Positions 1,602 to 54,713 of a stretch of DNA of 64,000 bases are shown one piece after another. The notes under the pieces were generated by a model. The model searched no databases. It worked only from the letters and a program-made list of their open reading frames with translations, and was not told where the DNA came from. The stretch lies in NCBI RefSeq assembly GCF_000385215.1, contig NZ_ARQK01000060.1, positions 62,001-126,000 of the forward strand, given 5' to 3'. The DNA comes from Thioalkalivibrio thiocyanoxidans ARh2 (GTDB lineage: Bacteria > Pseudomonadota > Gammaproteobacteria > Ectothiorhodospirales > Ectothiorhodospiraceae). A program made the translations under genes and the position numbers. Position 1 is the stretch's first letter; each line of letters starts with the position of its first letter.

Positions 1602-1754
1602 TGAGTATCCGATGGTTGTCGATTGTTCGTAATGTAAAAAGTACGGTGATTCCGGTTCGGGACGCGGCCAGCGAAAGCGTCTCATCATAGCAGCAAGGGC
1701 AAGATGGTTTGGTGCCCAAATTGGTCGGGGGCGCCCTGAGCGCGTATCATGCTC

Positions 1755-1945
1755 CGCTTTCGTCAGGTGCCTGCAGTTGGCAGGTGAAACGGGAAGCCGG
1801 TGCAAGTCCGGTGCTGCCCCCGCAACGGTAAGCGAGCGGTAAATCGCTCGGCAGACTGGCCACTGGGTCCTGTGCCCGGGAAGGCGTCCGCCGATCGGCA
1901 TTGTCCGACGCTCGCGAGCCCGGAGACCGGCCTGGCGGTGATTCA
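1755..1945 (+). ncRNA. Cobalamin riboswitch
   Basis: The leader shows the conserved parts of the B12 aptamer in order: a 5' stem with AGGTGCC, the core GAAACGGGAAGCCGGTGCAA (about 1785-1804), the GCCCCCGCAACGGTAA block, and near 1915-1932 the B12 box GAGCCCGGAGACCGGCC. It lies about 100 bases before bluB in the same orientation. It should lower expression of the bluB-cbiB-cobD-cobQ-cobU run when adenosylcobalamin is plentiful. Expression-platform details cannot be decided by eye. The boundaries are approximate. Confidence 0.93.
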
Positions 1946-2045
1946 TCCTGCGACCGTGCGGCGGGCAACGGTCGAGGGCGCAGGCGTGCTTGCTTGATGC
2001 CTGTTCCTTCGTGTCTTCGCCGTGCCGTCGCCTCGACGGAAGCTC

Positions 2046-2765: not shown

Positions 2766-3664
2766 CCACCTTTGCACTGCTGGTCGCCGCGCTGGTGCTG
2801 GATCGGCTGCTGGGGGATCCGCGGCGCGGCCATCCACTGGCCGGCTTCGGGACGCTGGCAGCCGGCGTGGAGCGGTTCGCCCATGCGGACTCGGTCTGGC
2901 GTGGCGGCTTCTGGGTGCTGGCGCTGGTCGTGCCCTTCGGGCTCGCGGCCTGGTGGCTGAGCCGTCTGCCGGCTGGCTGGCTGGTGGAACTGGCCGTGCT
3001 GTGGCTGGCGCTCGGCGGGCGCGGGCTGGAGGAGCACGCCCGTCGGGTGGCCGATGCCCTGCGGGCCGGGGACTTGCCCGGCGCCCGACAGGCGGTCGGC
3101 ATGCTGGTCAGCCGTGATACCTCCGAGCTGGACGCGTCGGGTGTTCGTGCGGCCACGGCGGAGTCGGTGCTGGAGAACGGCAACGACGCAGTGTTCGCGA
3201 CGGTATTCTGGTTCCTGGTGGCCGGCGCGGCGGGTGTCGTGGTCTACCGGCTGGTGAACACGCTGGATGCGATGTGGGGCTACCGCACGCCGCGCCATGC
3301 GCGCTTCGGGCGGGTCGCGGCGCGGCTGGACGATATCCTGAACTGGGTCCCGGCGCGCCTGACCAGCCTGGCCTATGCGCTGGCCGGTCAGACACGCACG
3401 GCGCTGCGCTGCTGGCGCGACCAGGGCAGACGCTGGAAGAGCCCGAACGCGGGGCCGGTGATGGCCGCCGGGGCCGGGGCGCTGGGGGTGACACTGGGCG
3501 GCCCGGCACGCTATGCCGGGGGTATCGAGGAACGGCCGGTTCTCGGTGCCGGGGCCGCCCCCGGCCCGGGCACCATCGACGCCGCGCTGCGGCTGGTGGA
3601 TCGCGCGCTGGCGATCTGGCTAGTGGCCATCGCAACAGGAGTACTGATTCTTGTATTCGTCTAA
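2762..3664 (+). CDS. cbiB: Adenosylcobinamide-phosphate synthase CbiB
   Basis: A 300-residue membrane protein with the CbiB/CobD family marks: DRLLGDPRRGHPLAGFG at the N-terminus, LVSRDTSELDASGVRAATAESVLENGNDAVFAT in the middle and YRLVNTLDAMWGYR plus NAGPVMAAGAGALGVTLGG further on (quoted in short pieces). It attaches the aminopropanol arm (or its phosphate) to adenosylcobyric acid at the inner membrane. It starts with ATG inside the bluB stop (ATGA overlap), and its 3' end overlaps the following gene by 14 bases. Length and motifs are normal for the family. Confidence 0.92.
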   Translation: MTTFALLVAALVLDRLLGDPRRGHPLAGFGTLAAGVERFAHADSVWRGGFWVLALVVPFGLAAWWLSRLPAGWLVELAVLWLALGGRGLEEHARRVADALRAGDLPGARQAVGMLVSRDTSELDASGVRAATAESVLENGNDAVFATVFWFLVAGAAGVVVYRLVNTLDAMWGYRTPRHARFGRVAARLDDILNWVPARLTSLAYALAGQTRTALRCWRDQGRRWKSPNAGPVMAAGAGALGVTLGGPARYAGGIEERPVLGAGAAPGPGTIDAALRLVDRALAIWLVAIATGVLILVFV

Positions 3665-4676
3665 CGCCACAACCGAATCCGCGAGCGGGCCGCTGGAGCA
3701 GGTCCACGGGGGCGGTGTGCGTGCGGCGGCGGCGCATTACGGCATCCCCGCGCCGCAGTGGCTGGACCTGTCCACGGGGATCAACCCGCAGGGTTATCCC
3801 GTCGGGCCGGTGCCCGCCGGGGCCTGGCAGCGCCTGCCGGAGGACGAGGACGGGCTGGAGGCCGCGGCCCGGGCGTACTACGGCGCCGAATCGCTGCTGC
3901 CGGTCGCCGGTTCCCAGGCGGCGATCCAGGCGCTGCCACGGCTGCGCGGGAAGCGTGCGCGTGTCGGGGTGCTGGAGCCGAGCTACAACGAGCACGCCCG
4001 TGCCTGGCGGGCCGCCGGACACGAAGTGGTCGAGCTGACCGAAGACGAGCTCGCCGGGGCAGCGGCCACGCTGGACGTACTGGTGCTCGTCAATCCGAAC
4101 AACCCCACCGCCGTGTATCTCGACCCCGAGACGTTGCTCGACTGGCACCGCATGCTGGCCGCACGCGGCGGCTGGCTGGTGGTCGACGAGGCCTTCATGG
4201 ACACCACGCCCGAGCAGAGCCTGGCCGGCTATACGCCGCGCGAGGGGCTGTTCGTGCTGCGTTCGCTGGGCAAGTTCTTCGGTCTGGCCGGGGCGCGGGT
4301 CGGCTTCGTGCTGGCCCCGGATGGGTGGCTGCGGCGTATCGCCGAGCTGCTGGGGCCGTGGAGCGTGCCGGGCCCCGCGCGGTGGGTGGCGCAGCAGGCA
4401 CTGGAAGACCGGGCGTGGCAGACCCAGACGCGCAGGCGACTGCAGGAGGCCGGGCGCCGGCTCGAGACACTGCTGCGGGACGCCGGCTTGCCGCCGGCGG
4501 GCGGGACGCCGCTGTTCCAGTGGTGCCGGACCGAACGTGCGCAGGTGATCCAGGATGCGCTGGCGCGTCAGGGCATCCTCGTGCGTCGTTTCGACCGCCC
4601 GGCCAGCCTGCGCTTCGGCCTGCCAGGGAGCGAGGCCGAGTGGCAGCGGCTGGAAACGGGGCTGCAGCAGGCATGA
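3651..4676 (+). CDS. cobD: L-threonine-O-3-phosphate decarboxylase, CobD/CobC type (PLP enzyme)
   Basis: 341 residues of the fold-type I aminotransferase family. It makes (R)-1-amino-2-propanol phosphate for the CbiB step. The N-terminus [15 protein letters not shown] followed by [14 protein letters not shown] is typical of Cob[10 protein letters not shown] and VVDEAFMD bind PLP, and [15 protein letters not shown] contains the Schiff-base lysine. The likely start is the TTG at 3651, which has AGGAG 9 bases before it; the gene therefore begins inside the cbiB 3' end. Its TGA overlaps the cobQ ATG. Gene naming differs between species (CobC in Pseudomonas). Confidence 0.9.
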
Positions 4677-35097: not shown

Positions 35098-35146
35098 TGG
35101 TGTCCCCGGCAGGATTCGAACCTGCGACCTGCCCCTTAGGAGGGGG
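35098..35146 (-). repeat. attL: 49-bp copy of the tRNA-Arg(CCU) 3' half
   Basis: This stretch is identical to 54637-54685, running from the CCA end through the T-arm into the anticodon stem (contains GGATTCGAACCTGCGACC). The rest of the tRNA is absent here. It is the left junction of an element that integrated into tRNA-Arg and left the complete tRNA at the right end. Confidence 0.95.
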
Positions 35147-35225: not shown

Positions 35226-36254
35226 ATGGCCACCATCCGACGACGCTCGACCGGCAAATGGGAGGCCCAGATACGCCGTCTGGGTCAGCCCTCGATCACG
35301 AAGACCTTCAGCGCCCGCGAGGACGCCGCGAAGTGGGCGAGGGCGACCGAGCGTGAGATGGATACCGGCCAGTTCCTGCCGCGCACCGACGGGGAACGGA
35401 CCACGGTGGCCGATGCGTGCGAGCGCTACGCGCGCGAGATCCTCCCCACGAAAAAGTCCCGTCGGCAGATCGCCTCCGACCTCACGCGCCTGATCGACGA
35501 GTGGGGGCCGCACTCGCTCATCGCGCTCACGCCCGACCGGATCGCGGCGTACCGGGACCGTCGGCTACAGACCGTCTCTGGCGACCAAGTGAGAAAGGAG
35601 CTGGGGCTGCTGGGGCGTATTTATCGGGTGGCGATGACCGACTGGGGCATCCATATACCCCATGGCGCACCGATGGATCGTGTGCGTCTTCCCCCGGCGG
35701 GGCGCGGTCGCGAGCGCAGGGTGTCGGACGCCGAACTGGATGCGATCCTGGCCGTTACCGGGTCACGGGAGCTGCCGAGCCTCTGCCGCGTGGCCGTCGA
35801 GACGGCCATGCGGCGCGGCGAGCTGACCGGCCTGACCTGGGAGCGCGTTGATCTTCGCCGACGGGTGGTCCACCTGCCGGACACCAAAAACGGCCAAGCC
35901 CGCGATGTCCCCCTCTCGACGAGAGCGCGGGATGAGCTCGCTGCGATACCGCGCAGACTGTCAGGGCGGGTCTGGGGCCTGACACCTGACGCGGCCAGCC
36001 GGGCGTTCGCCCGCGCGGTGCAGACGGCACGGGCGCGCCATGTCGAGACGCAGGAGGCGGCTGGAGCCACCCCCGAGGCGGATTGGCTCGTAGGTGTGCG
36101 CTTCCACGACCTCCGCCACGAGGCGACCTCACGCCTGTTCGAGCGGGGCCTGTCGATCGTTGAGGTCTCTGCAATCACCGGACACACTGACCTCGCGATG
36201 CTGCGCCGCTACACGCACCTGCGGGCTGACGACTTGGTGGAGCGGCTTGGCTAG
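35226..36254 (+). CDS. int: Tyrosine recombinase/integrase of the element
   Basis: 342 residues. N-terminal AP2-like/arm-binding part (TIRRRSTGKWEAQIRRLGQP), a core-binding SAM-like domain (about 60-150), and a catalytic domain with the first arginine in ETAMRRGELTGLTW, HDLRHEATSRLFE (H-x-x-R), GHTDLAMLRRYTHL (H and nucleophile tyrosine). It lies 80 bases inside attL and is transcribed into the element. It should catalyse integration at and excision from tRNA-Arg. Confidence 0.95.
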   Translation: MATIRRRSTGKWEAQIRRLGQPSITKTFSAREDAAKWARATEREMDTGQFLPRTDGERTTVADACERYAREILPTKKSRRQIASDLTRLIDEWGPHSLIALTPDRIAAYRDRRLQTVSGDQVRKELGLLGRIYRVAMTDWGIHIPHGAPMDRVRLPPAGRGRERRVSDAELDAILAVTGSRELPSLCRVAVETAMRRGELTGLTWERVDLRRRVVHLPDTKNGQARDVPLSTRARDELAAIPRRLSGRVWGLTPDAASRAFARAVQTARARHVETQEAAGATPEADWLVGVRFHDLRHEATSRLFERGLSIVEVSAITGHTDLAMLRRYTHLRADDLVERLG

Positions 36255-36832: not shown

Positions 36833-38143
36833 ATGCACTCCTCCGATACCCCAACAAACCTGCTCCGCTCTGCGCTTGACCTGACCACGCGGGCGGATGT
36901 GGCCCGTGAACTCGGGGTAGATGAGCGGACCGTTCGTCGTTGGGAAAGGGGAGAGGTTCCCATGCCGGCCCATTGGGAACCGGCTCTGAGTCAGGTTCTC
37001 AGACAGCGGGCCCCATTACGCGCTTCTTCCGGTGGGCAGTTCACCTTCATCGATCTGTTTGCTGGCATCGGCGGCATCCGTCAAGGATTCGAAGGGGCCG
37101 GTGGCCACTGTGTCTTCTCCAGTGAATGGGACAAATTCGCACTGCAGACCTACCGGGCCAATTTCGGAAATGAGGACGAGAAGATCCAGACCGATATCCG
37201 GGAGATTACTGCGGTATCCGACGACGCGGAGCAGAACAGTCGGTCAATTGGGGAGCAGATTCCGGAACATGACGTTCTGCTCGCCGGTTTTCCCTGTCAG
37301 CCGTTCTCGCTCGCGGGCGTCTCCAAGAAGAACAGTCTCGGTCGGGATCATGGTTTCCTGTGCGAGGCGCAGGGGACACTGTTCTTCGACGTTGCGCGGA
37401 TTATCGAGGTCAAGCGGCCCCGAGCCTTTCTGCTCGAGAACGTGAAGAACCTGCGCAGTCACGATGGTGGGCGGACCTATGAAGTAATCCGCAAGGTGCT
37501 GGACGAGCTGGGCTATCAGGTCCACGACCGGATCATTGATGGCAAGGGGTTCGTTCCGCAGCATCGTGAGCGGATCTATATGGTCGGTTTCCGGAAGGAC
37601 ACTCCCTTTACTTGGAACCAGCTGGATTTCCCTCGGCCTGATGCCAGGACGCTCCGGGAGATCCTGCATCCGGAGGATGGGTCGGAAGCTGCGGAACCAC
37701 CCTATACGGAGGGCCCGAAGGCGAAGGTCGGCTCCAAATACACGCTCAGCGAGAAGCTTTGGAAGTATCTGCAGGATTACCGCGCCAAGCATGAACGCGC
37801 CGGCAACGGTTTTGGTTACAGCAAGGTCGGTCCGGGCGACACCGCGCGCACGCTCTCCGCTCGCTATCACAAGGACGGGTCCGAGATTCTGGTGGACCGG
37901 GGGCGCAAAGCCCGACCGCGCCGTCTCACACCACGGGAGTGCGCGCGCCTGATGGGCTTCGGGGACGACTTCCAGATCCCGGTCAGTGACACCCAGGCGT
38001 ACCGTCAGTTCGGGAACTCCGTGGTGGTGCCCGTCATCCGCGAGATCGCCTCCGCGATGGTTCCCCATATCCTTGCGGACATCCGTTCCGAAGAGGAGAG
38101 CGAGCAGGCCGAATTGCCCATGGAGTTCCGGGATACGGCGTGA
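36833..38143 (+). CDS. dcm: DNA cytosine-5 methyltransferase, Dcm/M.EcoRII type
   Basis: 436 residues. Residues 15-45 are a helix-turn-helix (TRADVARELGVDERTVRRWE) as in Dcm and M.EcoRII. Motif I FIDLFAGIGG at 72-81, motif IV GFPCQPFS with the catalytic cysteine near 155, motif VI ENVKNL near 202, VIII QHRERIYMVGF, and motif X QFGNSVVVPVI. The variable region and the GDTARTLSARYHKDGSEILV stretch match enzymes that recognise CCWGG, the target also of the neighbouring EcoRII-type nuclease. The stop overlaps the vsr start. Confidence 0.92.
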   Translation: MHSSDTPTNLLRSALDLTTRADVARELGVDERTVRRWERGEVPMPAHWEPALSQVLRQRAPLRASSGGQFTFIDLFAGIGGIRQGFEGAGGHCVFSSEWDKFALQTYRANFGNEDEKIQTDIREITAVSDDAEQNSRSIGEQIPEHDVLLAGFPCQPFSLAGVSKKNSLGRDHGFLCEAQGTLFFDVARIIEVKRPRAFLLENVKNLRSHDGGRTYEVIRKVLDELGYQVHDRIIDGKGFVPQHRERIYMVGFRKDTPFTWNQLDFPRPDARTLREILHPEDGSEAAEPPYTEGPKAKVGSKYTLSEKLWKYLQDYRAKHERAGNGFGYSKVGPGDTARTLSARYHKDGSEILVDRGRKARPRRLTPRECARLMGFGDDFQIPVSDTQAYRQFGNSVVVPVIREIASAMVPHILADIRSEEESEQAELPMEFRDTA

Positions 38144-38646
38144 CCGACCGGCTCACGACGGAGGCACGCAGCCGGCTGATGAGCCGGGTGCGGGGGAGCG
38201 ACACCAAGCCGGAACTTTGGCTACGGCGTGCGCTGCATGCGAAGGGTTTTCGTTACCGGCTGCACGCTAAAGAGCTTCCGGGCCGCCCCGACCTGGTTTT
38301 CCCTCGATATTCAGCGGTCATATTCGTTCATGGCTGCTTCTGGCATGGCCACGACTGTCACCTCTTCCAGATGCCGTCAACGCGCGAGGAGTTCTGGCGA
38401 GAGAAAATCGCAAAGAACCGAGAGCGGGACCGGAGAAACAGGACCACGCTTCTCGACATGGGGTGGCGCGTGCTCGAGGTCTGGGAATGTGCGATGCGGG
38501 GCCGCGACCGGCTCGCGGCGGAAGACCTGCTGCAGCAGGTGACGGAATGGCTGAATGGGAGATCCGGCCGACACGAGATCCGAGGGCTTTCGCGCTTAAC
38601 GGAACGCGGTACAGGAAGTGATGCCCGCAGGGAGGACGCAGGGTGA
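38140..38646 (+). CDS. vsr: Very-short-patch repair endonuclease Vsr
   Basis: 168 residues. RSRLMSRVRGSDTKPELWLR, LPGRPDLVFPRYSAVIFVHG with the active-site aspartate, and the zinc ligands in CFWHGHDCHLFQMP are family marks. Vsr nicks at T:G mismatches left by deamination of 5-methylcytosine at Dcm sites and so accompanies Dcm genes. GTG start inside the dcm stop; the stop in turn overlaps the next GTG. Confidence 0.94.
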   Translation: MTDRLTTEARSRLMSRVRGSDTKPELWLRRALHAKGFRYRLHAKELPGRPDLVFPRYSAVIFVHGCFWHGHDCHLFQMPSTREEFWREKIAKNRERDRRNRTTLLDMGWRVLEVWECAMRGRDRLAAEDLLQQVTEWLNGRSGRHEIRGLSRLTERGTGSDARREDAG

Positions 38647-39887
38647 TCGATTCGATATCGGAGCTTTTCGAGGGGGCCGCGGCCAAATGGCTGAGTGCCG
38701 TGGACGCCGAGCCGGACAAATCGAACCAGCATGAGATCGGAGGCCTGCCGAGCGCTGGCTTCAGGCGCTATCTGGGCGAGCCGGCGAAGGATGAGGTGCT
38801 CCGGTTCGATACGGTCATGGCCTATCTCGAGGACGATGAAGACACGCCCCCCGAGATCGTGGAGGACACGGTATCCTGGTACGACTGCCGATGGAAGAAC
38901 CCCAGTCGCACCCCCGAATACCGGCTCTATTACCGGAGCAATGCCGTTACGGACCGGATCGCCGAGGGCGACCTCATGGTCATTGCCAAGGCGCGTGATG
39001 GGTCCCTGCTGATCGTATTCGCGCCCGGTGAGTCGGAAGTCGAATCGCAGATCCGGCACGTGTTCGGATTCGGGGACTTGGGCGAGCGGTTCCAGGCCGC
39101 ATCGATGCCGGCGTCAGCGCTGACCCTGCCGCTTAAGCTACTCCTCGAGGAGATCGGCGTCGCCTCGATCCAACCGGACGACGCCACTGGGGATCTAGAA
39201 ATCGTCCTCGAGCGTTTTCCCGACCGGTTCCCCTCGACGGCGGAATTCTCATCGCTGGCTAGGGAGCTCAGTCGTGGCGACCCACTGGGACAGCCTGATG
39301 ACACGCTCCTCGCGTGGATGGAGCGCGAAGAAGCCCTCTTTCGGGCCTATGAGCGCGAGGTTGTTCTGGAGCGGTTGGAGCAGGGTTTCCACGGGGACGT
39401 TGACGAATTCGTCAGGTTCTCCCTAAGTGTCCATAACCGCCGAAAGTCACGAATGGGGCATGCGTTCGAGAACCATCTCTCGGCACTCTTCACGGCACAC
39501 TGCCTGCGGTTCGAGAAGGGCGGCGCCAAGCGGGTTACTGAGAATAAGTCCCGGCCGGATTTCCTCTTTCCGGGGTTTTCCGAATACCACGACCCTGCTT
39601 TTCCGGCGTCCCGGCTTTTCCTGCTTGGAGCGAAGACCACCTGCAAGGAACGTTGGCGGCAGGTCTTGGCGGAGGGGAAACGACTGAGGACAAAGTACCT
39701 TGCCACCCTTGAACCGGGGATCACCAAGACGCATACGGATGAGATGCTGGCTCACAACCTGCAGCTCGTGGTTCCAGAAGCTGTCCACTCGTCTTATTCG
39801 GTAGCCCAGCGAGATCAGATTATTGAGCTGCGGGAGTTTATCGATCGCGTCAAGTCTGCTGGTGAGCGCGGCGGGACTATAGGGTGA
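38643..39887 (+). CDS. Type II restriction endonuclease, EcoRII family
   Basis: 414 residues. The N-terminal half (to about 170) resembles the EcoRII-N effector DNA-binding domain. The C-terminal EcoRII-C domain shows MGHAFENHLSALF, RPDFLFPGFSEYHD (304-317), LGAKTTCKERWRQVLAEG (PD..D/EXK lysines at 331 and 335) and LATLEPGITKTHTDEM. EcoRII cuts before CCWGG and needs two sites. Gene order methylase-Vsr-nuclease with 4-base overlaps on both sides means one transcript with coupled translation. GTG start. Confidence 0.88.
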   Translation: MIDSISELFEGAAAKWLSAVDAEPDKSNQHEIGGLPSAGFRRYLGEPAKDEVLRFDTVMAYLEDDEDTPPEIVEDTVSWYDCRWKNPSRTPEYRLYYRSNAVTDRIAEGDLMVIAKARDGSLLIVFAPGESEVESQIRHVFGFGDLGERFQAASMPASALTLPLKLLLEEIGVASIQPDDATGDLEIVLERFPDRFPSTAEFSSLARELSRGDPLGQPDDTLLAWMEREEALFRAYEREVVLERLEQGFHGDVDEFVRFSLSVHNRRKSRMGHAFENHLSALFTAHCLRFEKGGAKRVTENKSRPDFLFPGFSEYHDPAFPASRLFLLGAKTTCKERWRQVLAEGKRLRTKYLATLEPGITKTHTDEMLAHNLQLVVPEAVHSSYSVAQRDQIIELREFIDRVKSAGERGGTIG

Positions 39888-40252
39888 TGTGGCGAGCTGT
39901 TGACGAGATCGTGTTTCCATGCGACGGAAATCGAGCCGGGCATGGATATCACTGCTGTCACCGCTCAGACGCGCATCAACGACCGCATCCTTTCCTAGGT
40001 CGATAGAAAACCGCGAGCGAGTGGTAGGGGACGGTTTCCTTAAGCGGATCGCCGAAAACGGCCCCTCAACCCCTTGAGTGGCCAAGCAGCGCCCGCACGC
40101 CACTATTCGTAGATGCAACTGTGCCTCGCTAACGGCCCGCGCATGCGGGCTACGAACTCTACCGACACGTAGCGGGAGCTGGGGCTCAGTGGCGATTTGG
40201 GGCCAGTATCGATCTCTGTCTTCCGGTTTTGTATAGATTTGAGGGGGTATGG
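39888..40252. other. Non-coding gap between the R-M unit and the OLD/UvrD pair
   Basis: 365 bases. No convincing open frame on either strand. Only short GC-rich repeats such as GCCCGCGCATGCGGGC (40134-40149) stand out. GAGGGGG ahead of the OLD gene start is its ribosome-binding site; promoters for the defence pair must lie here. Confidence 0.6.
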
Positions 40253-42241
40253 ATGAAAATTGAAGAAATCTGGATACACAATTTCCGGTGTTTTGGTCCT
40301 TCAGGCACAAAGATAGCTCTGGAGGGTTGCGCCACTGCATTTGTCGGTGGCAATGGTTCCGGCAAGACAGCCGCCTTCCAAGCAATCTCACGTCTTTTTG
40401 GTGTTACGAACGCAGGTCGAAGGGTTCGGAGGGAGGATTTTCATATTACCGAAGATCAGCAGGAGCTCCAGTCGGGAGCAACCCTGTCGATTGACGTATT
40501 GTTAGCGTTCCCCGAGCTGGAGGGTCTGGACGATGGCGATGTTGAGGACGCCGTTCCAGAGTTCTTCCTGCAAATGGCGGCTTCCGGACCAAGTGCTCCT
40601 CTCAAGGCGAGGATGAGGCTTCATGCGACATGGACGGACGACGGCACGCCGGAGGGCAGCATAGACGAGGACCTTCGTTGGATCACTGCGCTCGATGACC
40701 AATTTGAATGGGATGAATGCAAGCGAGTGCAGGCTGTGGAGCGGAGCTCGATCCAGCTCATCTATGTCCCGGCTGTCCGGGATGCGGAGACGCAGGTGAC
40801 GGCATTGCTAAAGGGGCGGTTGTGGCAGGCCGCAAGATGGTCTGGGGAATTCCGCAACCGCAGCGCAGAAAGCGTCCAAGCGATTCAGGAGCGGTTCGAG
40901 CGCGAGGAGCCCGCACGCGCTGTCCTAGATAAGCTCACAAAACGTTGGCGGCAGGTGCATGAGGCGGATACCGACACTCAACCGACCCTGCGCTTAGTCG
41001 AGAGCCGGTTCGAGGAACTGGTTCGCAAAGCGGAGTTTGCGCTTGCTCCCGACGAGTCCGGACAGGAGCGCGCCCTCAGTGAACTCAGTGACGGGCAGCG
41101 TTCGCTTTTTCATATCGCTCTTACCGCGGCGACTCTGGAAGTCGAGAAGGACCTTTTCGCGTCAACTGCCGGCGAAGGCGCGTTCCATCAGGATAAGCTC
41201 AGGCGGACGAGTCTTACCTTCCTTGCGATCGAAGAGCCAGAGAACAGCCTGTCTCCGTTCTTTCTCTCACGCATCGTCACGCTGGCTCGGGAGATCGGCG
41301 TGCTCCCGTCCGCCCAAGTAGCCCTGTCTAGCCATTCGCCAGCCATTCTCAGCCGCATTGAACCGGAGGAGGTACGCTATTTCCGCTTAAACCGGCTGCG
41401 CCGATCGTCCAATGTCCGTCGGCTCACGATGCCGGGAGGCGAGGACGAAGCAAGGCAGTATGTCCGGCTTGCCATCAGGGCCTATCCGGAGCTTTACTTC
41501 GCCCGCTTCGTCATCCTTGGCGAAGGAGATTCCGAGCGCCTTGTGATCCCGCGCGTTGCGGATGCCATGGGTGTTCAGCTCGACCCCTCATTTGTGCCGA
41601 TCGTCCCCCTAGGCGGGCGTTATGTCAGCCACTTCTGGCGGCTTCTCAATGATCTCGACATCCCCCATGCGACCCTGCTGGACCTCGATAGTGGCCGTTC
41701 ACACGGCGGTGCTCGCCTTTTGGCTGATATTGTTGAAAAGCTGAAGGGACTCGGCAACGACCTTATCTCGAATTCGCTGGCCGAGGCTGGAAATATCGAT
41801 CCTGATGAGTTGGATAATGTGGCGGACGGCGATTTGCTGGACGAGGGCGGGGGGCACGCCTGGCTTCAGGCCCTAAGAGAAGAGGGCGTATTCCTTTCGT
41901 TTCCGCTGGATATCGATTTTGCGATGCTTAGTGCGTTCCCGGAAGCCTATCAGCACCCGCATCCTGGAGGCTGCGGGCCGCGCAGCGGCCGCGCTGCTAC
42001 TAGTGACAAGAAGGCCGTGACGCTCAAGACTGGCGGCAATCCTGATCTTTACGATGAGACATATGATGATAGGTTCAAATGGTACCCCTACCTATTCCTG
42101 AGCAGGAGCAAGCCCGAGACCCATATTGCGGCCCTTGCTCGGATCGAGCCAGACGAACTTTCCAAGGATGCACCCGCCGAGCTCAAGGCACTCATCGAGC
42201 ATGTGAAGGAAAGGCTCGGGCTTGAGGGCAATGATACATGA
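40253..42241 (+). CDS. OLD-family ATPase/TOPRIM endonuclease, Gabija GajA-like (class 2 OLD)
   Basis: 662 residues. ABC-type ATPase: Walker A GGNGSGKT at 32-39, signature-like LSDGQRSLFHIAL near 278-290, Walker B LTFLAIEEPENSLSP at 321-335, H-loop SSHSP at 359-363. TOPRIM domain: LGEGDSE at 422-428 and LDLDSGRSHGG from 476. Class 2 OLD proteins are defined by an adjacent UvrD-like helicase gene, which is what follows here with a 4-base overlap. The pair resembles Gabija (GajA-GajB), in which GajA nicks DNA when phage infection depletes nucleotides. Whether this pair is Gabija proper needs a tree. Confidence 0.85.
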   Translation: MKIEEIWIHNFRCFGPSGTKIALEGCATAFVGGNGSGKTAAFQAISRLFGVTNAGRRVRREDFHITEDQQELQSGATLSIDVLLAFPELEGLDDGDVEDAVPEFFLQMAASGPSAPLKARMRLHATWTDDGTPEGSIDEDLRWITALDDQFEWDECKRVQAVERSSIQLIYVPAVRDAETQVTALLKGRLWQAARWSGEFRNRSAESVQAIQERFEREEPARAVLDKLTKRWRQVHEADTDTQPTLRLVESRFEELVRKAEFALAPDESGQERALSELSDGQRSLFHIALTAATLEVEKDLFASTAGEGAFHQDKLRRTSLTFLAIEEPENSLSPFFLSRIVTLAREIGVLPSAQVALSSHSPAILSRIEPEEVRYFRLNRLRRSSNVRRLTMPGGEDEARQYVRLAIRAYPELYFARFVILGEGDSERLVIPRVADAMGVQLDPSFVPIVPLGGRYVSHFWRLLNDLDIPHATLLDLDSGRSHGGARLLADIVEKLKGLGNDLISNSLAEAGNIDPDELDNVADGDLLDEGGGHAWLQALREEGVFLSFPLDIDFAMLSAFPEAYQHPHPGGCGPRSGRAATSDKKAVTLKTGGNPDLYDETYDDRFKWYPYLFLSRSKPETHIAALARIEPDELSKDAPAELKALIEHVKERLGLEGNDT

Positions 42242-44079
42242 GTGGAGTGCGCCCCGGAGACTGGAGTGCGCAAGGCGTTGAGTACCTCGAGCCGCGCGCA
42301 TGGGAAGCGTTGCGGGAGACCGAGAGGAGCGTGCTGGTAACGGCAGGCGCGGGCGCGGGGAAGACAGAGTTTCTCGCGCAGAAAGCAACTTACCTTCTCC
42401 AGACAGGGCTCTGCCCTGCGCCCAAACGCATACTTGCGATCAGCTTCAAGCGTGATGCGGCAGGCAATCTCGCGGAGAGGGTAGCCACGCGATGTCCACC
42501 TGAACAGGCGCGGCGCTTCAACTCCTACACCTTCGACGCATTCGCGAAGAGCCTTTTGGACCGGTTTCGTGCGGCGGTTCCCGATGCGTATCGTCCTCCT
42601 TCGGACTACCGAATTGTGATGCCATACGGGCGGGATTACAGCGATTTTCTGACTTCGCATGGGTTCCATGGCGTGAGGACTGACAAGTTCGAGCATGCGA
42701 TAGCTAGGGAGCGACTGCCGATCGCCAATGAAGGCTCTCAGTTGCAACGAGCTGTCGCAACCTACTGGCAGGCTCAGTATGATGAACAGAACGGTGTTCG
42801 GCTCTCGTTTCCGATGATCAACCGCCTTGTGGAATTGTTGCTCCGGAAGAACCACTCGATACTGAAGGCGCTACAGCTCACCTATCCCGTCATTTTTCTT
42901 GATGAGTTTCAGGACACCACCTTCGCGCAGTTTGAACTCCTGTACACAGCATTTGGTGGTAGCGAAGCCGTCTTCACGGCGGTTGGCGACGACAAGCAGC
43001 GGATTATGGGTTGGGCCGGAGCGATGCCAGAAGCCTTCGCGAAGTTCGAAGAGGGCTTTGCGGCGCAGCGCATATCTCTGATCTGCAACTGGCGATCGCA
43101 CGCGGACCTCGTTCAGATTCAACATCTCGTCGCGAGCAGGATTGATCCGACTGTTGAGGAGCCGGAAGCACGAGGCAACCGGCGGGTGGATGGCGACGTT
43201 TGCGCCATCTGGGAATTTGCGACGAAGGAGCAAGAAAGCGATTACCTCGCACATTGGGTCGAACGCGAGGTGCAGGCAGGCCATGTCGAGGCCCACGATG
43301 TCGCCATTCTTGTCCGCATGCGCGCCGACCAAGTTGAGGGCGAGCTTTCCCAAGCATTTGCGAACCGGGGGCTAAGGTTGCGGAATGTCGCTCGCAACGT
43401 TGGCGATATCGCCATTCAGGACCTGCTTGGCGAGGATATGACGCAAATCCTCCTGCGGCTTATACGCCTTGGCGCTAGTGGGCGGAGCCCCGAAAGCTGG
43501 AACGCTTCGCTGCTGGACTTGCAACATCTCGAAGCGGTCGACCACGGCGATGAAGCGGGACAGCAACTCCTTCAAGAGCGTCTACAGACATTCGTACGCG
43601 AGATGCGGCGAACCCTGAGAGGCCGTGATCCTGTCCCTGGCGCCGCAGGTGAGGTCGCGCAGTCGGCTCTTGATTTCGTTGGGGCCGAGGTCCTGCGGCG
43701 GGCCTTTCCCTCTTATAAGAGGCAACCCGATTTCTATCGCGTCTGGAATGGGTTTAGGCTGCTCCTAGAGGATTCCCTGCAGCACGCCGAGACGTGGTCA
43801 GGCGCTCTTGATGAATTCGAGGGTTTCGGTCAAATCTCCCTGATGACGATCCACAAGAGCAAGGGCCTCGAGTTCCACACGATCATCTTCTACGGCCTTG
43901 ACAACCGGACGTGGTGGAGCCTTACGCCTGATCGCCCTGAAGAGCTAAAATCGTTCTTTGTGGCCTTCACGCGCGCGAAGCAAAGGGCATTCTTTACTCT
44001 GTGCGCTGAGCGTGGCCAACCCATTGGGTGGTTGGAGAGAATCCTCCTCCCCGGTGGAGTTCGGAGAGTGCGCTTTTGA
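42238..44079 (+). CDS. UvrD/Rep-like superfamily 1 helicase, Gabija GajB-like
   Basis: 613 residues. Walker A TAGAGAGKT at 35-43, motif Ia LAISFKRDAAGNLAERV, motif II FLDEFQDTT (DEFQD at 222-226), motif III GDDKQRIMGWAGA, motif V TIHKSKGLEFHTIIF, motif VI FFVAFTRAKQRAFF. It is shorter than housekeeping UvrD. The ATGA overlap with the OLD gene ties the two functions. GajB-type helicases sense DNA termini and activate the system. Confidence 0.87.
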   Translation: MSGVRPGDWSAQGVEYLEPRAWEALRETERSVLVTAGAGAGKTEFLAQKATYLLQTGLCPAPKRILAISFKRDAAGNLAERVATRCPPEQARRFNSYTFDAFAKSLLDRFRAAVPDAYRPPSDYRIVMPYGRDYSDFLTSHGFHGVRTDKFEHAIARERLPIANEGSQLQRAVATYWQAQYDEQNGVRLSFPMINRLVELLLRKNHSILKALQLTYPVIFLDEFQDTTFAQFELLYTAFGGSEAVFTAVGDDKQRIMGWAGAMPEAFAKFEEGFAAQRISLICNWRSHADLVQIQHLVASRIDPTVEEPEARGNRRVDGDVCAIWEFATKEQESDYLAHWVEREVQAGHVEAHDVAILVRMRADQVEGELSQAFANRGLRLRNVARNVGDIAIQDLLGEDMTQILLRLIRLGASGRSPESWNASLLDLQHLEAVDHGDEAGQQLLQERLQTFVREMRRTLRGRDPVPGAAGEVAQSALDFVGAEVLRRAFPSYKRQPDFYRVWNGFRLLLEDSLQHAETWSGALDEFEGFGQISLMTIHKSKGLEFHTIIFYGLDNRTWWSLTPDRPEELKSFFVAFTRAKQRAFFTLCAERGQPIGWLERILLPGGVRRVRF

Positions 44080-44291: not shown

Positions 44292-44966
44292 TCACACGTC
44301 TGTCGTGCGGAATCGCCCAAAACACGGCAGGTCCTCTGGTGTATGGCAGGGCCAGGGCACAGCGCCAGAGTGCTTTGCCCATACCTTCCGCGCACGCCTC
44401 AGCATCTTAGCTGCCTGCGTTCGTACGCCTGAGTGCATTGGGCGGCGGAGTAGGGTGTCCACGTAGGCACGTAGACGCTTGGGGTCGCCGTTGCGCCCAG
44501 CGGCTTGGGCAAGCTCGGCCAGGTAGTTAGCGCAGTCACGTTCGGCCTGTGGCGTGAGGCACCACGTCCAGCGGGCTCCGCCGCCATGCTGTCGGGGCCG
44601 GGTCAGGTACATGCACACATAATCGCCCCACGTCAGACGCTCTGAGCGAGCGTCACACAGTGTTTCTTCGTCCTTCACCCGGCCGGTTCCGGCCTCGGTG
44701 ACCAGCAGCACCCAGCGGATCATCTCGCCCCGATCATCCGGCGGCAGCCCAGCTCCGATCAGGAGTGCGGCGCATCGGCCTCGTCGTTTGCGGTGCTGAC
44801 GGGCAGCAGGGGATATATCGACCTCGTAGAGGCGCCGGAACTTCGCGACTAGTCGATCCCATTTGTCCTCGCGCACCACGCCCGTGGTGTACAGCGGATA
44901 CCCCCTGCCGATGGATCGCAGGATGGCCCGCTGGGCCTCGGCCTGAGATGGATATAGGTGACGCAT
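44292..44966 (-). CDS. Unknown 224-residue protein of plasmid-like elements
   Basis: Basic, mainly helical: MRHLYPSQAEAQRAILRSIG, VREDKWDRLVAKFRRLYEVD, a cysteine- and tryptophan-containing middle (ERLTWGDYVCMYLTRP) and C-terminal LRAYVDTLLRRPMHSGVRTQ. I do not recognise it. GGAGG lies 4 bases before the ATG at 44966; an ATG immediately before it is at 44969. The promoter region on its 5' side holds the hexanucleotide tandem repeats at 45112. It is the leftmost gene of the plasmid-like half. Composition suggests nucleic-acid binding. Confidence 0.55.
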   Translation of the reverse strand: MRHLYPSQAEAQRAILRSIGRGYPLYTTGVVREDKWDRLVAKFRRLYEVDISPAARQHRKRRGRCAALLIGAGLPPDDRGEMIRWVLLVTEAGTGRVKDEETLCDARSERLTWGDYVCMYLTRPRQHGGGARWTWCLTPQAERDCANYLAELAQAAGRNGDPKRLRAYVDTLLRRPMHSGVRTQAAKMLRRARKVWAKHSGAVPWPCHTPEDLPCFGRFRTTDV

Positions 44967-45354
44967 CATGCCTCCGGCTGTTCGGGTGTGTTTCTAGGAT
45001 TCTATCAGCGTTATTGGCGGATTCATCACCTAGTTTATTACCTAACTAATTACATTGTATTTCAGTGGTCGATCGCTTGCGCTGCCGGTCATTGAGGCGG
45101 TCACAGTTTATGTAACGGTAACTGTAACTGTAACTGTAACTGTAACTTTAACAGTTACTTCGACTGTCGTTGGAGGAGTGACTTGCGTAGTTCCTCTAGG
45201 GTCTTGGCCGATGGTCTGACTACTGTTTCCGTTTTCATTGGGAGAGGAAGTGCGTTGTGCATTGTAATTCACCGATGGTTGGATTGGATCGGGCTAAGGT
45301 ATTGATGCAAAAACAATGTAGCACGGCAACAGCATTATGCAGTTAATGTTCCTA
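44967..45354. other. AT-rich intergenic block with tandem hexamers
   Basis: No gene seen. GC content is clearly lower than in flanking DNA. The block holds the 45112-45147 hexamer array, then promoter-like AT-rich sequence before the structured RNA region. It probably contains the divergent promoters of the unknown gene on the left and the RNA on the right. Confidence 0.5.
45112..45147. repeat. Hexanucleotide tandem array GTAAC(G/T)
   Basis: Six head-to-tail hexamers: GTAACG once, then GTAACT five times. Directly after it comes TTAACAGTTAC, a partial inverted copy that can fold back on the array. It lies about 145 bases before the gene at 44966 and about 200 before the structured RNA. The regular 6-base pitch may be a binding array for a protein or slipped-strand product. 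Confidence 0.9.
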
Positions 45355-46680
45355 TGTACGACGGTTGGCGGGTTCTTTTTGTCCGCCAACACCAAGTACA
45401 CGGAGGCTGCGCATTCGCCGCAGCCAGAGTCGGCCACCGGGACTCGGTGGGCGACCGCGATATTGGCAAGGCACCGCGCGGCTGGCAGAGCGTTGGCGGT
45501 CTCCTCGGCGGCTCCCATAGGGAGCGGTGGAGGAGGCCGCCAACCTCACCACGCCAGCCACGCCACACATACATCACGGGCCGTATGGCCCCCGGGGACT
45601 GCCAATCCCCAGGACGTCGGCCGCCAACCGGTGTCCAGTGCTACTTAGCGCCCGTTTGCCCGTAATTGGGCTCGCCGGGTGCGAGGGAGGCCCAGTGGAC
45701 TAATCCCGGCCTGCCAGCCGGAGTAACCCCACTGGTCTATCCCATCCGTGACATCGATGTACCGATGTTGGGCGACCGGGACACGGGCGCGCGGAGGAAA
45801 TGCCGCGTGACCCTGCCCGGGGCGAAAAGAGGTAATCAGTCCTCTCCTCGGGGTGCGGGAAACCGCGCAACGAGTGCCACACACGTGGGCCGTCCACGCC
45901 AGTAGTGATGCTGGCGTCGCCGCCATACGACGAGTGTCGTAGGGGCGGCGGTGTACCTCAATGTGATCCGGGTCGCTCCGGGGAGCATTGGGGGCAGGCG
46001 GGAGCGTAAACGTGTAACTGCGCCGTACAGGCGCTGTGTGGAGCTGTCACAGCCGACTAGGGTAGTGACCTGCGGCGATTCAAAGTCTGATGTACGTACC
46101 TGAGCCGTTGTGGAGCATTGGGCCAGGGAAATCCGGGGGATGCGCCCGGAGATGGTAGACATCAGATGACGAGGATCTAGGCGGTGGCAGTACTGACGCC
46201 CCGGGATAACCGGGCAAAGGGCCGAGGGGGTCGGTGTAGTGGCATACACCGGCGCGGAGCTTACGACTCCGAAAATCCCCGACGCCCCGAGAGCGTTCCG
46301 CGATCAGGCAATGAACCGCGTTCCCGAAAGGAGCGTGGGAGTTTTACTTTCCCGAGAGGAAAGTAAAACACTCCGGGTTGGCACCCGGAGGCCGAAAGCG
46401 AGAGGTAGCACGATGGTGTAGTACCCCATCCTGGCGGATGGGTGTCACGTTCCGTATTCGAGCGTGACGTGTGGTGAGCATTGGGATCGGGTTGGCCCCC
46501 GATCTCAACAAGAGTGTAGTGAGGCTTGGCGGCCTTATTTTTTCCAATGTGACCGATATGGAGGATATACCATGATGTACGACGTCGATACGACATAGAT
46601 GTGCGATTGCACATGACGACCACGCCCGTAGCCATTGACTGCGGGCCGTTCTCCCACTCCAGGCATTGCCTGGAGTGGGA
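45355..46680 (+). ncRNA. Candidate giant ornate structured RNA (about 1.3 kb)
   Basis: No credible protein frame covers this region, but perfect stem-loops follow one another. Examples by arm positions: 45364-45371/45383-45390 (closed by 45355-45359/45396-45400), 45405-45411/45419-45425, 45434-45439/45445-45450, 45492-45499 plus 45501-45505 with 45531-45535 plus 45537-45544, 45751-45756/45763-45768, 45790-45794/45803-45807, 45896-45902/45911-45917, 45918-45924/45944-45950, 46033-46038/46048-46053, 46132-46137/46145-46150, 46232-46238/46245-46251, 46255-46259/46267-46271, 46341-46352/46358-46369, 46371-46378/46383-46390, 46425-46431/46436-46442, 46485-46491/46498-46504, 46624-46631/46639-46646 and 46652-46664/46668-46680. 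GAGCATTGGG recurs three times (45983, 46113, 46476). Several loops present GGA. Strand is inferred, mainly from a T-run at 46538 and the convergent csrA-like gene. It does not match tmRNA, RNase P or intron signatures that I know. Confidence 0.65.
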
Positions 46681-46751
46681 TATATCGAATTCTTAACGCG
46701 CAGGCCGAGTCATGGATAAAATCGAGGGATGGCCTGCGTTTCCGTTATGCA

Positions 46752-46803: not shown

Positions 46804-47238
46804 CTATGCAGCCCTGTCGTCGACCAGCTCATCGCGCAGGATCGTCACTTCCGCCGGCGCAGTGACCGTGATCCGTGCTGTGCCGCCCGAGACCCGAAGG
46901 ACGCTCACGTCGTAGTCGAGTCCAGGCCGACCGATCACAGCGGACTCACCACGCGACATACCCAGCACGAGATACCCGGCACAATCGGTGTAGCAGGGCG
47001 GCCCGGCCTGGGCCTCGCCGCCGGCGATGGCCTCCCCATCCTGGTCGGATTGCGACAGGATCGAGGCGCGGACGATCGGCATATCGCGCGGCGCTTCGAT
47101 TCCGAGGCGGGGAGAGGAGCCGACTGGGGCATAGGTCACGTGCACGTCCGGGCCGATCCAAAAGCCTTCGCCTGCGCGGCGGGTCAAGGTGAGGGTGGTG
47201 CGGCCGTCAGTACGGCCGGATTGCTGGTTAGCCGTCAT
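46804..47238 (-). CDS. Tandem CsrA-domain protein (two CsrA units in one chain)
   Basis: 144 residues. Unit 1 (about 15-62): TLTLTRRAGEGFWIG, RLGIEAPRDMPIVRASI, like CsrA LTRRVGE...IGVNAPKEVAVHREEI. Unit 2 (about 89-141): YLVLGMSRGESAVIGRPGLD, ARITVTAPAEVTILRDEL. CsrA is normally a 60-residue domain-swapped dimer whose two RNA sites each combine strand 1 of one chain with strand 5 of the other. In unit 1 the strand-1 arginines (20, 21) and a strand-5 arginine (57) remain. In unit 2 the strand-1 pair is M94-S95 but R135 remains. So one RNA face (strand 1 of unit 1, strand 5 of unit 2) could be intact and the other degenerate. GGAGA precedes the ATG by 7 bases. It is convergent with the structured RNA. 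Confidence 0.8.
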   Translation of the reverse strand: MTANQQSGRTDGRTTLTLTRRAGEGFWIGPDVHVTYAPVGSSPRLGIEAPRDMPIVRASILSQSDQDGEAIAGGEAQAGPPCYTDCAGYLVLGMSRGESAVIGRPGLDYDVSVLRVSGGTARITVTAPAEVTILRDELVDDRAA

Positions 47239-48120: not shown

Positions 48121-49227
48121 ATGGACGAAAGACTGGTCTATAAAAGCAACGCCCTGGTGGAGGCGTCCTACCGCCTGAGCGTATACGAGCAGCGCATCAT
48201 CCTCGGGTGTATCGCTCAGGTGCGGCGGGACGAGCCGCTGACTGATGAGCGGCTCTACACGATCAGCGCCCAGCAAGTCGCCCAGGATGCCGGAGTGAGC
48301 GTTGGCCGCGCCTATCAGCACCTCCGAGCCGCGTCAGGACGGCTGTACCGCCGGGAGGTCACCCTGCACGACGCTCCCAACGGAGGGGGCGCCGCGAAGG
48401 TGCGTCTGACCCGCTGGGTCCAGGAAGTGGTCTATCAGGAGGCTCAAGGCACCGTATCGCTGCGCTTCAGCAGGCCGATCCTGCCCTACTTGACGCAGCT
48501 CACTGAGCAGTTCACCCGCTACGCCCTTGGCGATGTCGCGAAGCTGAACAGTGCCTACGCGATCCGGCTGTACGAGTTGCTGTGTCAGTGGCGGACTGCG
48601 GGCAAACGCGAGGTCTCCATCGACTGGCTACGCGAGGCCTTCCAGCTGGAGGGCAGGTACCCAGCGACCAAGGACCTCAAACGATGGGTGATCCAGCCAG
48701 CCGTCGACCAAATCAACGAGCACTCGCCGCTGTGGGTTTGCTGGGATCAGCGGAAGTCGGGACGTCGGATCACCCATTTCCTGTTCGAGTTCCGCAGGAA
48801 GGAATCGAAATCCGACAGCAGAGTCTCCTCGCCGTCTCTCTTGCCAGCGGCAACCTACCTGCCGGACGACTGGGTGCTGCCCGCTGAGTGGCGGGAGTGG
48901 GCAGCCGAGCAGGGCAAGGCCAAACGAATCCGCCTGAGTGACGCCGACATTGAGGAGATGGGTGAGATGTTCGCGGATCACTGGCGCAGCGAAGCGGGTG
49001 AGGAGGCGCGGAAAGTGGATTGGCTCGCAACCTGGCGGAACTGGGTTCGCCGTGAGCTGCAATGGAAGAAGGAGCGAGCCGGCCGATTCGGAGGTGCGGG
49101 ATCGCAGAAACCGGAAGGCCGGGTGAGTGCGGTCAGGACGGCTAATCAGATGGCGGAGCAGCGAGAAAACGAGCCCGAAGACCTGCGTGCGGCTGTTTTT
49201 GGCCACCGATCCCGCCCGGAGCAATGA
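48121..49227 (+). CDS. rep: Plasmid replication initiator, Rep_3/RepB family
   Basis: 368 residues. Two winged-helix units are characteristic: YKSNALVEASYRLSVYEQRI, ISAQQVAQDAGVSVGRAYQH, LRRAASGRLYRREVTLHD-like stretch, then ALGDVAKLNSAYAIRLYELL, CQWRTAGKREVSIDWLREAF and KRWVIQPAVDQINEHSPLWV. The C-terminal 140 residues are variable and charged. Rep_3 proteins bind iterons and open the origin of theta plasmids. GAGG 5 bases before the ATG. The iterons and AT-rich block precede it. Confidence 0.9.
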   Translation: MDERLVYKSNALVEASYRLSVYEQRIILGCIAQVRRDEPLTDERLYTISAQQVAQDAGVSVGRAYQHLRAASGRLYRREVTLHDAPNGGGAAKVRLTRWVQEVVYQEAQGTVSLRFSRPILPYLTQLTEQFTRYALGDVAKLNSAYAIRLYELLCQWRTAGKREVSIDWLREAFQLEGRYPATKDLKRWVIQPAVDQINEHSPLWVCWDQRKSGRRITHFLFEFRRKESKSDSRVSSPSLLPAATYLPDDWVLPAEWREWAAEQGKAKRIRLSDADIEEMGEMFADHWRSEAGEEARKVDWLATWRNWVRRELQWKKERAGRFGGAGSQKPEGRVSAVRTANQMAEQRENEPEDLRAAVFGHRSRPEQ

Positions 49228-54636: not shown

Positions 54637-54713
54637 TGGTGTCCCCGGCAGGATTCGAACCTGCGACCTGCCCCTTAGGAGGGGGCTGCTCTATCCAGCT
54701 GAGCTACGGAGAC
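54637..54713 (-). tRNA. tRNA-Arg(CCU), integration target (attR in its 3' half)
   Basis: Minus strand, 77 bases with encoded CCA. Acceptor GTCTCCG pairs with CGGGGAC; D-arm AGCTCAGCTGGATAGAGC-type; anticodon loop CTCCTAA gives CCU; T-arm GCAGGTTCGAATCCTGC. Bases 54637-54685 are identical to attL at 35098-35146, so the element joined here and restored the gene. Confidence 0.96.

What the first reader, a model, noticed from the sequence alone, without database searches (positions are those of the whole stretch)
45355..46680. Giant ornate non-coding RNA candidate on a tRNA-integrated element
1.3 kb without a credible gene carries more than 25 stems of 5-13 bp, most perfect, placed one after another, including nested and multi-part ones (45492-45544; 45918-45950). 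Random or decaying DNA does not look like this. Size and density recall the giant bacterial RNAs of the GOLLD, ROOL and OLE type, which also live on phages, plasmids and tRNA-linked elements, but I see no motif that identifies it as one of them. It may be a new class.
Basis: partly seen in the sequence, partly recalled or inferred. Interest (0 to 1): 0.88.

Follow-up and report, generated by a model that had tools for sequence, protein, structure and literature searches.

The report
Giant plasmid RNA with protein partner
A kilobase-long folded RNA, not found in the RNA family library, is carried by many bacterial plasmids and islands beside an undescribed protein, in the place where related plasmids keep the gene that starts DNA transfer between cells, so it may be an RNA-protein machine for plasmid transfer.

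Summary
Window 45350-46680 (+) encodes a structured RNA of about 1.0-1.3 kb that matches no Rfam family. It is not a singleton: 89 of 111 pattern-selected genome loci and 25 plasmid records carry relatives, in alpha-, beta- and gammaproteobacteria. In 76 non-redundant copies, 117 of 168 consensus pairs have double-sided changes; the 33 pairs above every tree-based null all lie in that fold. Models built without the window still find it.

It has a partner: an undescribed protein, median about 260 aa, in 76 of 103 RNA loci, usually divergently transcribed (window 44292-44969, -). Its AlphaFold model resembles the palm-thumb part of group II intron reverse transcriptases (Z 10.0), with no near-invariant Asp. 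Beside type IV secretion genes the pair lies between VirB11 and the coupling protein, where related plasmids carry a MobC-family protein. All 25 RNA plasmids are typed non-mobilizable, against 134 of 1306 with that coupling protein.

Best reading: an RNA-protein module in place of relaxase/oriT. RNA and pairing are shown; function is inferred; no transcript was measured.

The parts
45350..46680 (+). Giant structured RNA; ends inferred (5' end from the start of the profile match, 3' end from a strong terminal hairpin)
   Evidence: profile match 45344-46712 with the window in the training set; without the window in training, 45511-45890 at E 1.9e-26 and 46007-46209 at E 3e-4; no promoter or intrinsic terminator better than chance
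45636..46410 (+). Conserved core closed by helix 45636-45641 : 46405-46410
   Evidence: RNAalifold consensus of 76 copies; closing helix 95% paired, 5 of 6 pairs with double-sided changes
45645..45682 (+). Hairpin with the conserved GAAGCC-TGC-TAAT-GC motif, 14 pairs
   Evidence: 97% paired, 10 pairs double-sided, 3 above the null
45713..45787 (+). Most conserved sequence block, including TTGGGCGACNNGGAMACGGG
   Evidence: 42-nt match that led to the family; conserved in the 14-sequence alignment
45875..46043 (+). Multibranch domain (helix 45877-45881 : 46037-46041), basis of covariance model R1
   Evidence: R1, built from 56 other loci, matches the window over its full length at 43.1 bits, E 4.5e-7 in the whole host genome, and nothing else there; 32 of 40 pairs with double-sided changes
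46343..46403 (+). 3' hairpin domain of the core
   Evidence: helix 646-651:730-735 of the consensus, 93% paired, 5 of 6 pairs double-sided
46653..46679 (+). 11-bp perfect terminal hairpin
   Evidence: sequence; only weak sub-threshold Rfam matches to a microRNA hairpin, read as chance
44292..44969 (-). Partner protein, 225 aa, divergently transcribed; palm-thumb reverse-transcriptase-like fold, no family assigned
   Evidence: member of the protein cluster present in 76 of 103 RNA loci; no convincing Pfam, NCBIfam, PHROG, PADLOC or PDB sequence match; AlphaFold pLDDT 93.4; VIA-align Z 10.0 to 8t2r_D
44970..45349 (.). Divergent intergenic region between protein gene and RNA, with a tandem TAACTG array near 45118-45157
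   Evidence: sequence; function not tested
35098..35146 (+). Left attachment repeat (49 bp, copy of the tRNA-Arg 3' part)
   Evidence: 100% identity to 54637-54685
54637..54685 (+). Right attachment site inside tRNA-Arg (gene on the - strand)
35226..36254 (+). Tyrosine integrase of the element
   Evidence: Phage_integrase E 1.6e-22
48121..49227 (+). Rep_3 plasmid replication initiator in the element
   Evidence: Rep3_N E 4.4e-37

Best explanation
The stretch is the gene of a giant structured RNA that belongs to a widespread, undescribed RNA family of plasmids and integrated elements. It works with a small protein encoded next to it, usually on the other strand, as a ribonucleoprotein. The most likely job is to prepare and hand over the element's DNA for conjugative transfer, in place of (or as the core of a complex with) a relaxase and oriT: the RNP would recognise the element, present it to the type IV coupling protein of its own or a co-resident conjugation system, and so mobilise it. 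Shown here: the RNA family, its fold, its strand, the protein partnership, and the position beside VirB11 and coupling-protein genes. Inferred: that RNA and protein bind each other, that the pair acts in transfer, and how.
For: RNA: 89 of 111 pattern-selected loci at E < 1e-5; 117 of 168 pairs double-sided, G-U 1651 against A-C 214 cells, which fixes the + strand; 33 of 33 pairs above the highest of 20 tree-based null alignments lie in the consensus; hold-out hits. Partnership: protein cluster in 76 of 103 RNA loci, 70 of them on the minus strand upstream; 84 of 103 with a profile; searching by protein first, 14 of 24 assessable loci have the RNA, and 24 of 28 plasmids with the protein have the RNA. 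Transfer context: T4SS-type genes beside 24 of 103 loci, whose flanks are mostly 8 kb or less; at the 14 loci with the coupling protein the order protein(-) RNA(+) holds in 14 of 14 and the coupling protein is + on the RNA side in 12 of 14. In pKPC_UVA01 and two relatives the same place between coupling protein and VirB11 holds a MobC-family protein, and none of 6639 ORFs of 60 codons or more from the RNA loci plus these three controls matches it except the controls themselves. MOB-suite types all 25 RNA plasmids, and three more, as non-mobilizable, against 134 of 1306 plasmids with this coupling-protein family, although some carry typed mating-pair genes (MPF_F, MPF_T). Spread as a cargo: 3-kb E. 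coli plasmids carry the RNA without the protein, and strain FHI_NMBU_11 holds such a plasmid and a 34-kb T4SS plasmid that has both. Independence from replication: in pMtBL the RNA (3102-3873) lies outside the published OriR (1918-2759), on which vectors replicate (passages of PMC10033558). Precedent: SGI1 needs a self-encoded small RNA for mobilisation, with an atypical relaxase (PMC9299015, abstract).
Against: No transfer, binding or transcription was measured. Most RNA loci (79 of 103) show no T4SS gene in the short flanks seen. 'Non-mobilizable' is a typing result and can miss relaxases: two plasmids with a MobC-family protein are also typed so; 12 of the 25 plasmids are E. coli and partly near-identical, and 806 of the 1306 controls are Klebsiella. 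The MobC model match is below its curated cut-off (57.7 against 200 bits). The relaxase search of the E. coli T4SS plasmid showed only the best 25 of 30 Pfam and 25 of 90 NCBIfam families. Ten full-length protein loci lack the RNA, and some RNA loci lack the protein, one in a whole genome. Only 1 of 6 genomes with the 3-kb plasmid listed at full coverage also shows the T4SS plasmid.
Confidence: 0.42

Rival explanations
1. Fertility or gene-expression control: the RNA and an RNA-binding protein regulate the conjugation operon or plasmid genes, as FinP and FinO do (recalled), and do not touch DNA.
For: Divergent arrangement with the protein as first gene of the T4SS operon in several loci; RNA-regulated plasmid systems are common (recalled).
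Against: A ~700-nt conserved core with many covarying helices is far larger than known control RNAs; it also sits on plasmids and islands with no T4SS gene in view, including 3-kb plasmids.
Confidence: 0.2
2. Plasmid maintenance: the RNP acts in partition, copy control or incompatibility.
For: Found on small plasmids next to many kinds of Rep genes (Rep_3, TrfA, RepL, RepA); whole pMtBL is stable where an OriR-only vector is lost (PMC6848147, passages).
Against: pMtBL stability is credited in that paper to a ParAB-type pair; OriR vectors replicate without the RNA region; it also lives on long contigs and integrated elements (window) that need no partition.
Confidence: 0.14
3. A domesticated group II-intron or retron-like RNP whose reverse-transcriptase-like protein and RNA serve defence or another function unrelated to transfer.
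For: Fold match to group II intron RTs with two different family members (Z 10.0 and 8.7, 179 residues aligned), also weaker matches to Prp8, DRT2 and retrons; in the window it lies beside defence genes.
Against: No PADLOC family match for six members; no group II or retron Rfam hit; no near-invariant Asp; the T4SS placement is not explained.
Confidence: 0.12
4. Not an RNA: the region is a coding or DNA-level element whose conservation mimics RNA structure.
For: Annotated antisense CDS in one plasmid (L022 1006-1830 -); in 7 of 76 copies the longest minus-strand stop-free run covers 80% or more of the core.
Against: Stop-free runs equal shuffles on - (median 123 against mean 125 codons) and are shorter on + (77 against 93); only 20% of pairwise gaps are multiples of 3; strong covariation and a G-U excess on one strand.
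Confidence: 0.02

Closest known systems
GOLLD, ROOL and OLE giant ornate RNAs
   Same: Size, multi-domain fold, mobile-element habitat (as described in PMC12286853, seen as search listing; habitat partly recalled)
   Different: No Rfam match; different phylogenetic range; tied to a specific protein gene and to conjugation genes
Group II intron RNPs (RNA plus maturase/reverse transcriptase)
   Same: Large RNA plus a protein whose model matches the palm-thumb part of group II intron RTs
   Different: RNA matches no group II model; protein is short, separate from the RNA gene, with no near-invariant Asp; no intron arrangement seen
SGI1 mobilisation module with sgm-sRNA (PMC9299015, abstract)
   Same: An RNA encoded beside oriT and an atypical relaxase is essential for mobilising an element
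   Different: That RNA is small and comes from an mRNA 3' end; homology to this family was not tested; SGI1's relaxase is a tyrosine recombinase
MobC-type relaxase modules of T4SS plasmids such as pKPC_UVA01
   Same: Same gene order: coupling protein, ~1 kb non-coding stretch, ~230-aa protein, VirB11
   Different: Protein unrelated by profile; non-coding stretch not matched by the RNA profile or R1
pMtBL of Pseudoalteromonas TAC125
   Same: A member: carries both the RNA and the protein
   Different: Its literature seen here describes OriR and ParAB, with orf1 hypothetical and no structured RNA named in the passages seen

Membership tests
Known Rfam families incl. GOLLD, ROOL, OLE, HEARO, introns | covariance-model score at or above gathering | tested here: not met
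   no match over 45350-46680 at gathering and none credible at E <= 10; none in L017; none at gathering inside the RNA in 27 further loci (PK-repBA in L110 lies outside the RNA). That these four named families are in the library is recalled
Group II intron | intron RNA domains (Rfam models) | tested here: not met
Group II intron | protein with RT palm-thumb fold | tested here: inconclusive
   VIA-align Z 10.0, rmsd 3.3, 179 aligned and Z 8.7 below five ~80-residue helical designs at 9.2-9.8; Foldseek no match at E <= 0.001
Group II intron | catalytic Asp of the RT active site conserved | tested here: not met
   no Asp among invariant or 90%-conserved columns of 61 or 73 members
Relaxase families (MOB) | relaxase profile match of the partner protein | tested here: not met
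   no Pfam or NCBIfam relaxase for 5 and 6 members tested
Relaxase families (MOB) | nicks oriT and pilots DNA | not testable with these tools
   needs an experiment
This RNA family (defined here) | profile and fold match without the window in training | tested here: met
   nhmmer E 1.9e-26 scaled to genome size, none in the reversed window; R1 43.1 bits, E 4.5e-7; no R1 match in 22 pattern-only genome loci and 2 viral contigs
This RNA family (defined here) | partner protein gene next to the RNA | tested here: met
   window 44292-44969 (-), 375 nt from the RNA match, in the protein cluster
Integrative mobilizable element | integrase, attachment repeats | tested here: met
Integrative mobilizable element | relaxase gene | tested here: inconclusive
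   none among the 10 element proteins scanned; smaller ORFs of the element were not scanned

The most novel reading that the evidence does not exclude
The RNP is an RNA-based relaxase: the giant RNA, perhaps of group II-intron descent and held by a catalytically silent RT-like protein, itself cuts or covalently joins the plasmid strand and guides it into the type IV secretion channel. Conjugation would then have an RNA-centred form alongside protein relaxases.
Probability: 0.08. Interest if true: 1.

Novelty: categorically new. Interest (0 to 1): 0.92.

Why it matters
Few bacterial RNAs of this size are known and most lack a function. This one comes with a strict protein partner, a gene context that points to conjugation, and members on small plasmids of laboratory-friendly hosts (E. 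coli 3-kb and 30-kb plasmids, pMtBL of Pseudoalteromonas TAC125), so function can be tested at once. If the pair does replace a relaxase, plasmids now typed as non-mobilizable are being misjudged, and DNA transfer has an unknown RNA-dependent route. The RT-like fold raises the further question of a link to group II introns and Prp8.

Tried and rejected
Direct blastn of the window RNA: nothing in phages; in 46 other genomes of the family only short hits of 19-44 nt at E 0.0056 or worse, read as chance; one 42-nt plasmid hit that turned out to be the key. The B. glumae copy also found nothing in phages; the protein nothing in phages. Viral contigs: 2 pattern hits, neither confirmed by profile or R1.

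Rfam at E <= 10 gave only sub-threshold matches (hya, mir-3155, 6C and others) below gathering. A tRNA association in homologues was looked for and not found. A group II D5 motif was looked for only by eye and by Rfam; none seen. Foldseek against PDB and BFVD gave no match at E <= 0.001, so the fold claim rests on VIA-align and the two AlphaFold models. The replication-origin idea for pMtBL was rejected by published OriR coordinates. The sister non-coding regions of L150-L152 are not members by profile or R1. Coding was rejected. Counting stems is a poor test: shuffles have nearly as many. Papers: searches listed nothing that I recognised as this RNA-protein pair; I saw passages of PMC10033558 and PMC6848147, the abstract and section list of PMC9299015, and listings of the rest. 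Subscription journals and preprints are not held.

Weak points of the counts: the genome loci were selected by a short sequence motif, so the 89 of 111 are not a census; the protein is rare (2 of 398 genomes of the phylum sample including the host; 4 of 275; 22 of 398). Some protein-first loci are the same places as RNA-first ones (L160 lies in the genome of L033; L158 has the coordinates of L139), so the 14 of 24 are not independent. Five protein-first loci were set aside before that count (L155 and L168 end at the contig edge; L177-L179 are fragments; the three fragments show no RNA), and the window's own locus was left out. In L163 and L164 the RNA match is partial. The alignment for covariation kept 76 of 91 rows (below 90% identity, at least 400 columns). 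The covariation test is a home-made version of the substitution-permutation null, with 20 null alignments, not R-scape.

Full report
Observation. Between a 225-aa gene on the minus strand (44292-44969) and a CsrA-like gene (46804-47238, -) lies 1.8 kb without a credible gene. Its + strand folds far more stably than shuffles. The number of stems alone would not have been convincing: 48 helices of 5 bp or more against 38-42 in six shuffles. No Rfam family matches.

Finding the family. The window RNA hits nothing in phages and only itself in its own genome, apart from its own terminal hairpin. A 42-nt match to Burkholderia glumae plasmid p28s4p led to a non-coding kilobase there with more shared motifs. 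That copy as query found 25 plasmid records: Paraburkholderia, Polaromonas, Thiothrix, Azotobacter, Komagataeibacter, Novacetimonas, Gluconacetobacter, Halomonas, Pandoraea, E. coli plasmids of about 3 kb and of about 28-35 kb, and others. Fourteen copies align colinearly. A pattern from the best block found 111 stretches in species genomes; a profile confirms 89 at E < 1e-5. Of the weakest of these, six were also tested with a covariance model and all six matched. The 22 loci without profile match and the two viral contigs also gave no model match.

It is an RNA. In 76 non-redundant copies (mean identity 57%) the consensus has 168 pairs, 90% of cells paired, 117 pairs with double-sided Watson-Crick changes, and G-U 1651 against A-C 214, which says that the + strand is the RNA. 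With substitutions permuted along the tree in 20 null alignments, 33 column pairs exceed every null value; all 33 are consensus pairs. One domain (window 45875-46043) was aligned separately from 56 other loci: 32 of 40 pairs double-sided. Coding is not supported. The window copy is divergent, but holds: with the window removed from training, the profile finds 45511-45890 at E 1.9e-26 and the domain model finds 45875-46043 as its only match in the host genome, E 4.5e-7, and nothing in 57 other genomes of the relatives search.

The partner protein. Of 103 RNA loci (89 genome loci, 13 plasmids, the window), 76 carry one protein cluster, 70 of them on the minus strand upstream of the RNA; a profile raises this to 84. 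The window's is 44292-44969 (-). No convincing family match was found for the members tested and no PDB sequence match for the family profile. The pair can be split: Novacetimonas hansenii C110 has RNA on one plasmid and protein on another, Thiothrix has both about 16 kb apart, the 3-kb E. coli plasmid has only the RNA, and one genome has the RNA and no detected protein.

Fold of the protein. AlphaFold gives pLDDT 93.4 for the window protein and 88.0 for a relative. VIA-align ranks group II intron reverse transcriptases first for the window protein (8t2r_D, Z 10.0, 3.3 A, 179 of 224 residues, palm and thumb). For the relative they are the best matches over most of the chain (Z 8.7), with Prp8 at 8.3, below five short helical designs at 9.2-9.8. 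Foldseek gave no match at E <= 0.001. No Asp is near-invariant, so polymerase activity is unlikely (inference). An RNA-scaffolding, maturase-like protein is a natural partner for a giant RNA (inference).

Where the pair sits. Type IV secretion clusters lie beside 24 of 103 RNA loci. In the 14 loci with the coupling protein the order is protein(-), RNA(+), with the coupling protein + beyond the RNA in 12, and VirB11(-) beyond the protein in several. The E. coli plasmid L019 has VirB4, VirB6, VirB8, VirB9, VirB11 matches, a VirB10-like frame across the record start (by eye) and the coupling protein, and no relaxase among the families shown. In pKPC_UVA01 and two relatives the same place between coupling protein and VirB11 holds a 237-aa MobC-family protein (NF041423, E 1e-15 and 2.9e-9 for two of them, below cut-off), which none of the RNA loci encodes. 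All 25 plasmids are typed non-mobilizable; of 1306 plasmids with this coupling-protein family 1172 are mobilizable or conjugative. The typing can miss MobC proteins, and many records are near-copies, so this is support and not proof. Sixteen RNA loci have an integrase cluster, the window among them.

The window's element. A 19.6-kb element bounded by a 49-bp tRNA-Arg repeat carries an integrase, a C5 methylase with EcoRII-like nuclease, an OLD-type ATPase and UvrD-like helicase pair, the RNA-protein pair, CsrA, Rep_3, a Sel1 protein and a TrfA-like protein; no relaxase among the ten proteins scanned. It looks like an integrated plasmid.

How it may work. The pair replaces a relaxase gene in gene order, travels on plasmids that lack a typed relaxase, is found on 3-kb plasmids, and in pMtBL lies outside the replication origin. 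The simplest reading is a DNA-mobilising RNP: the RNA is the element's tag or processing scaffold, the protein holds it, the coupling protein receives it. Whether a strand is cut by the protein, by the RNA or by a host enzyme is open. SGI1, where a small RNA is essential for mobilisation, shows that RNA can be a transfer factor (PMC9299015, abstract). Rivals are regulation, maintenance and defence.

Novelty. The RNA matches no Rfam 15 family, the protein no family searched, and eight paper searches listed nothing that I recognised as describing it; subscription journals and preprints were not searchable. I call it categorically new because an RNA-protein pair in the relaxase position fits no kind I know; as a bare RNA it would be a new family of the giant ornate kind.

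Noticed in passing
L150 5568-6425, L151 14840-15741, L152 7462-8538: The ~0.9-1.1 kb non-coding stretch between coupling protein and MobC-family gene in pKPC_UVA01-like plasmids is itself extremely hairpin-rich (z about -14 to -27 against mononucleotide shuffles, both strands), with 58 or 62 double-sided pairs among three sequences; unrelated by profile. A second structured RNA, or cruciform DNA, in the same place.
   Followed up: partly
window 36833-44079: Defence cluster in the element: C5 methylase, EcoRII-like nuclease, and an OLD-type ATPase/TOPRIM plus UvrD-like helicase pair that recalls Gabija (name recalled).
   Followed up: partly
window 45118-45157: Tandem TAACTG repeats between the protein gene and the RNA, a possible control site.
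   Followed up: no
window 46804-47238 (-): Element-borne CsrA-like RNA-binding regulator just downstream of the RNA.
   Followed up: no
L170-L176, L180-L182: Full-length relatives of the partner protein without detectable RNA within 1.5 kb upstream: a sub-group that lost, moved or replaced the RNA.
   Followed up: partly
L042, L070, L086, L060: RNA copies on contigs labelled Oscillospiraceae, Thermaceae, Caryophanon (metagenome bins) and Mycobacterium; either wider range or mislabelled contigs.
   Followed up: no
L143 (pMtBL): The cryptic Pseudoalteromonas plasmid behind cold-expression vectors carries the RNA and the protein (orf1-like position 110-817), which the passages seen do not explain.
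   Followed up: partly
window 1748-1949 (+): Cobalamin riboswitch, ordinary.
   Followed up: no
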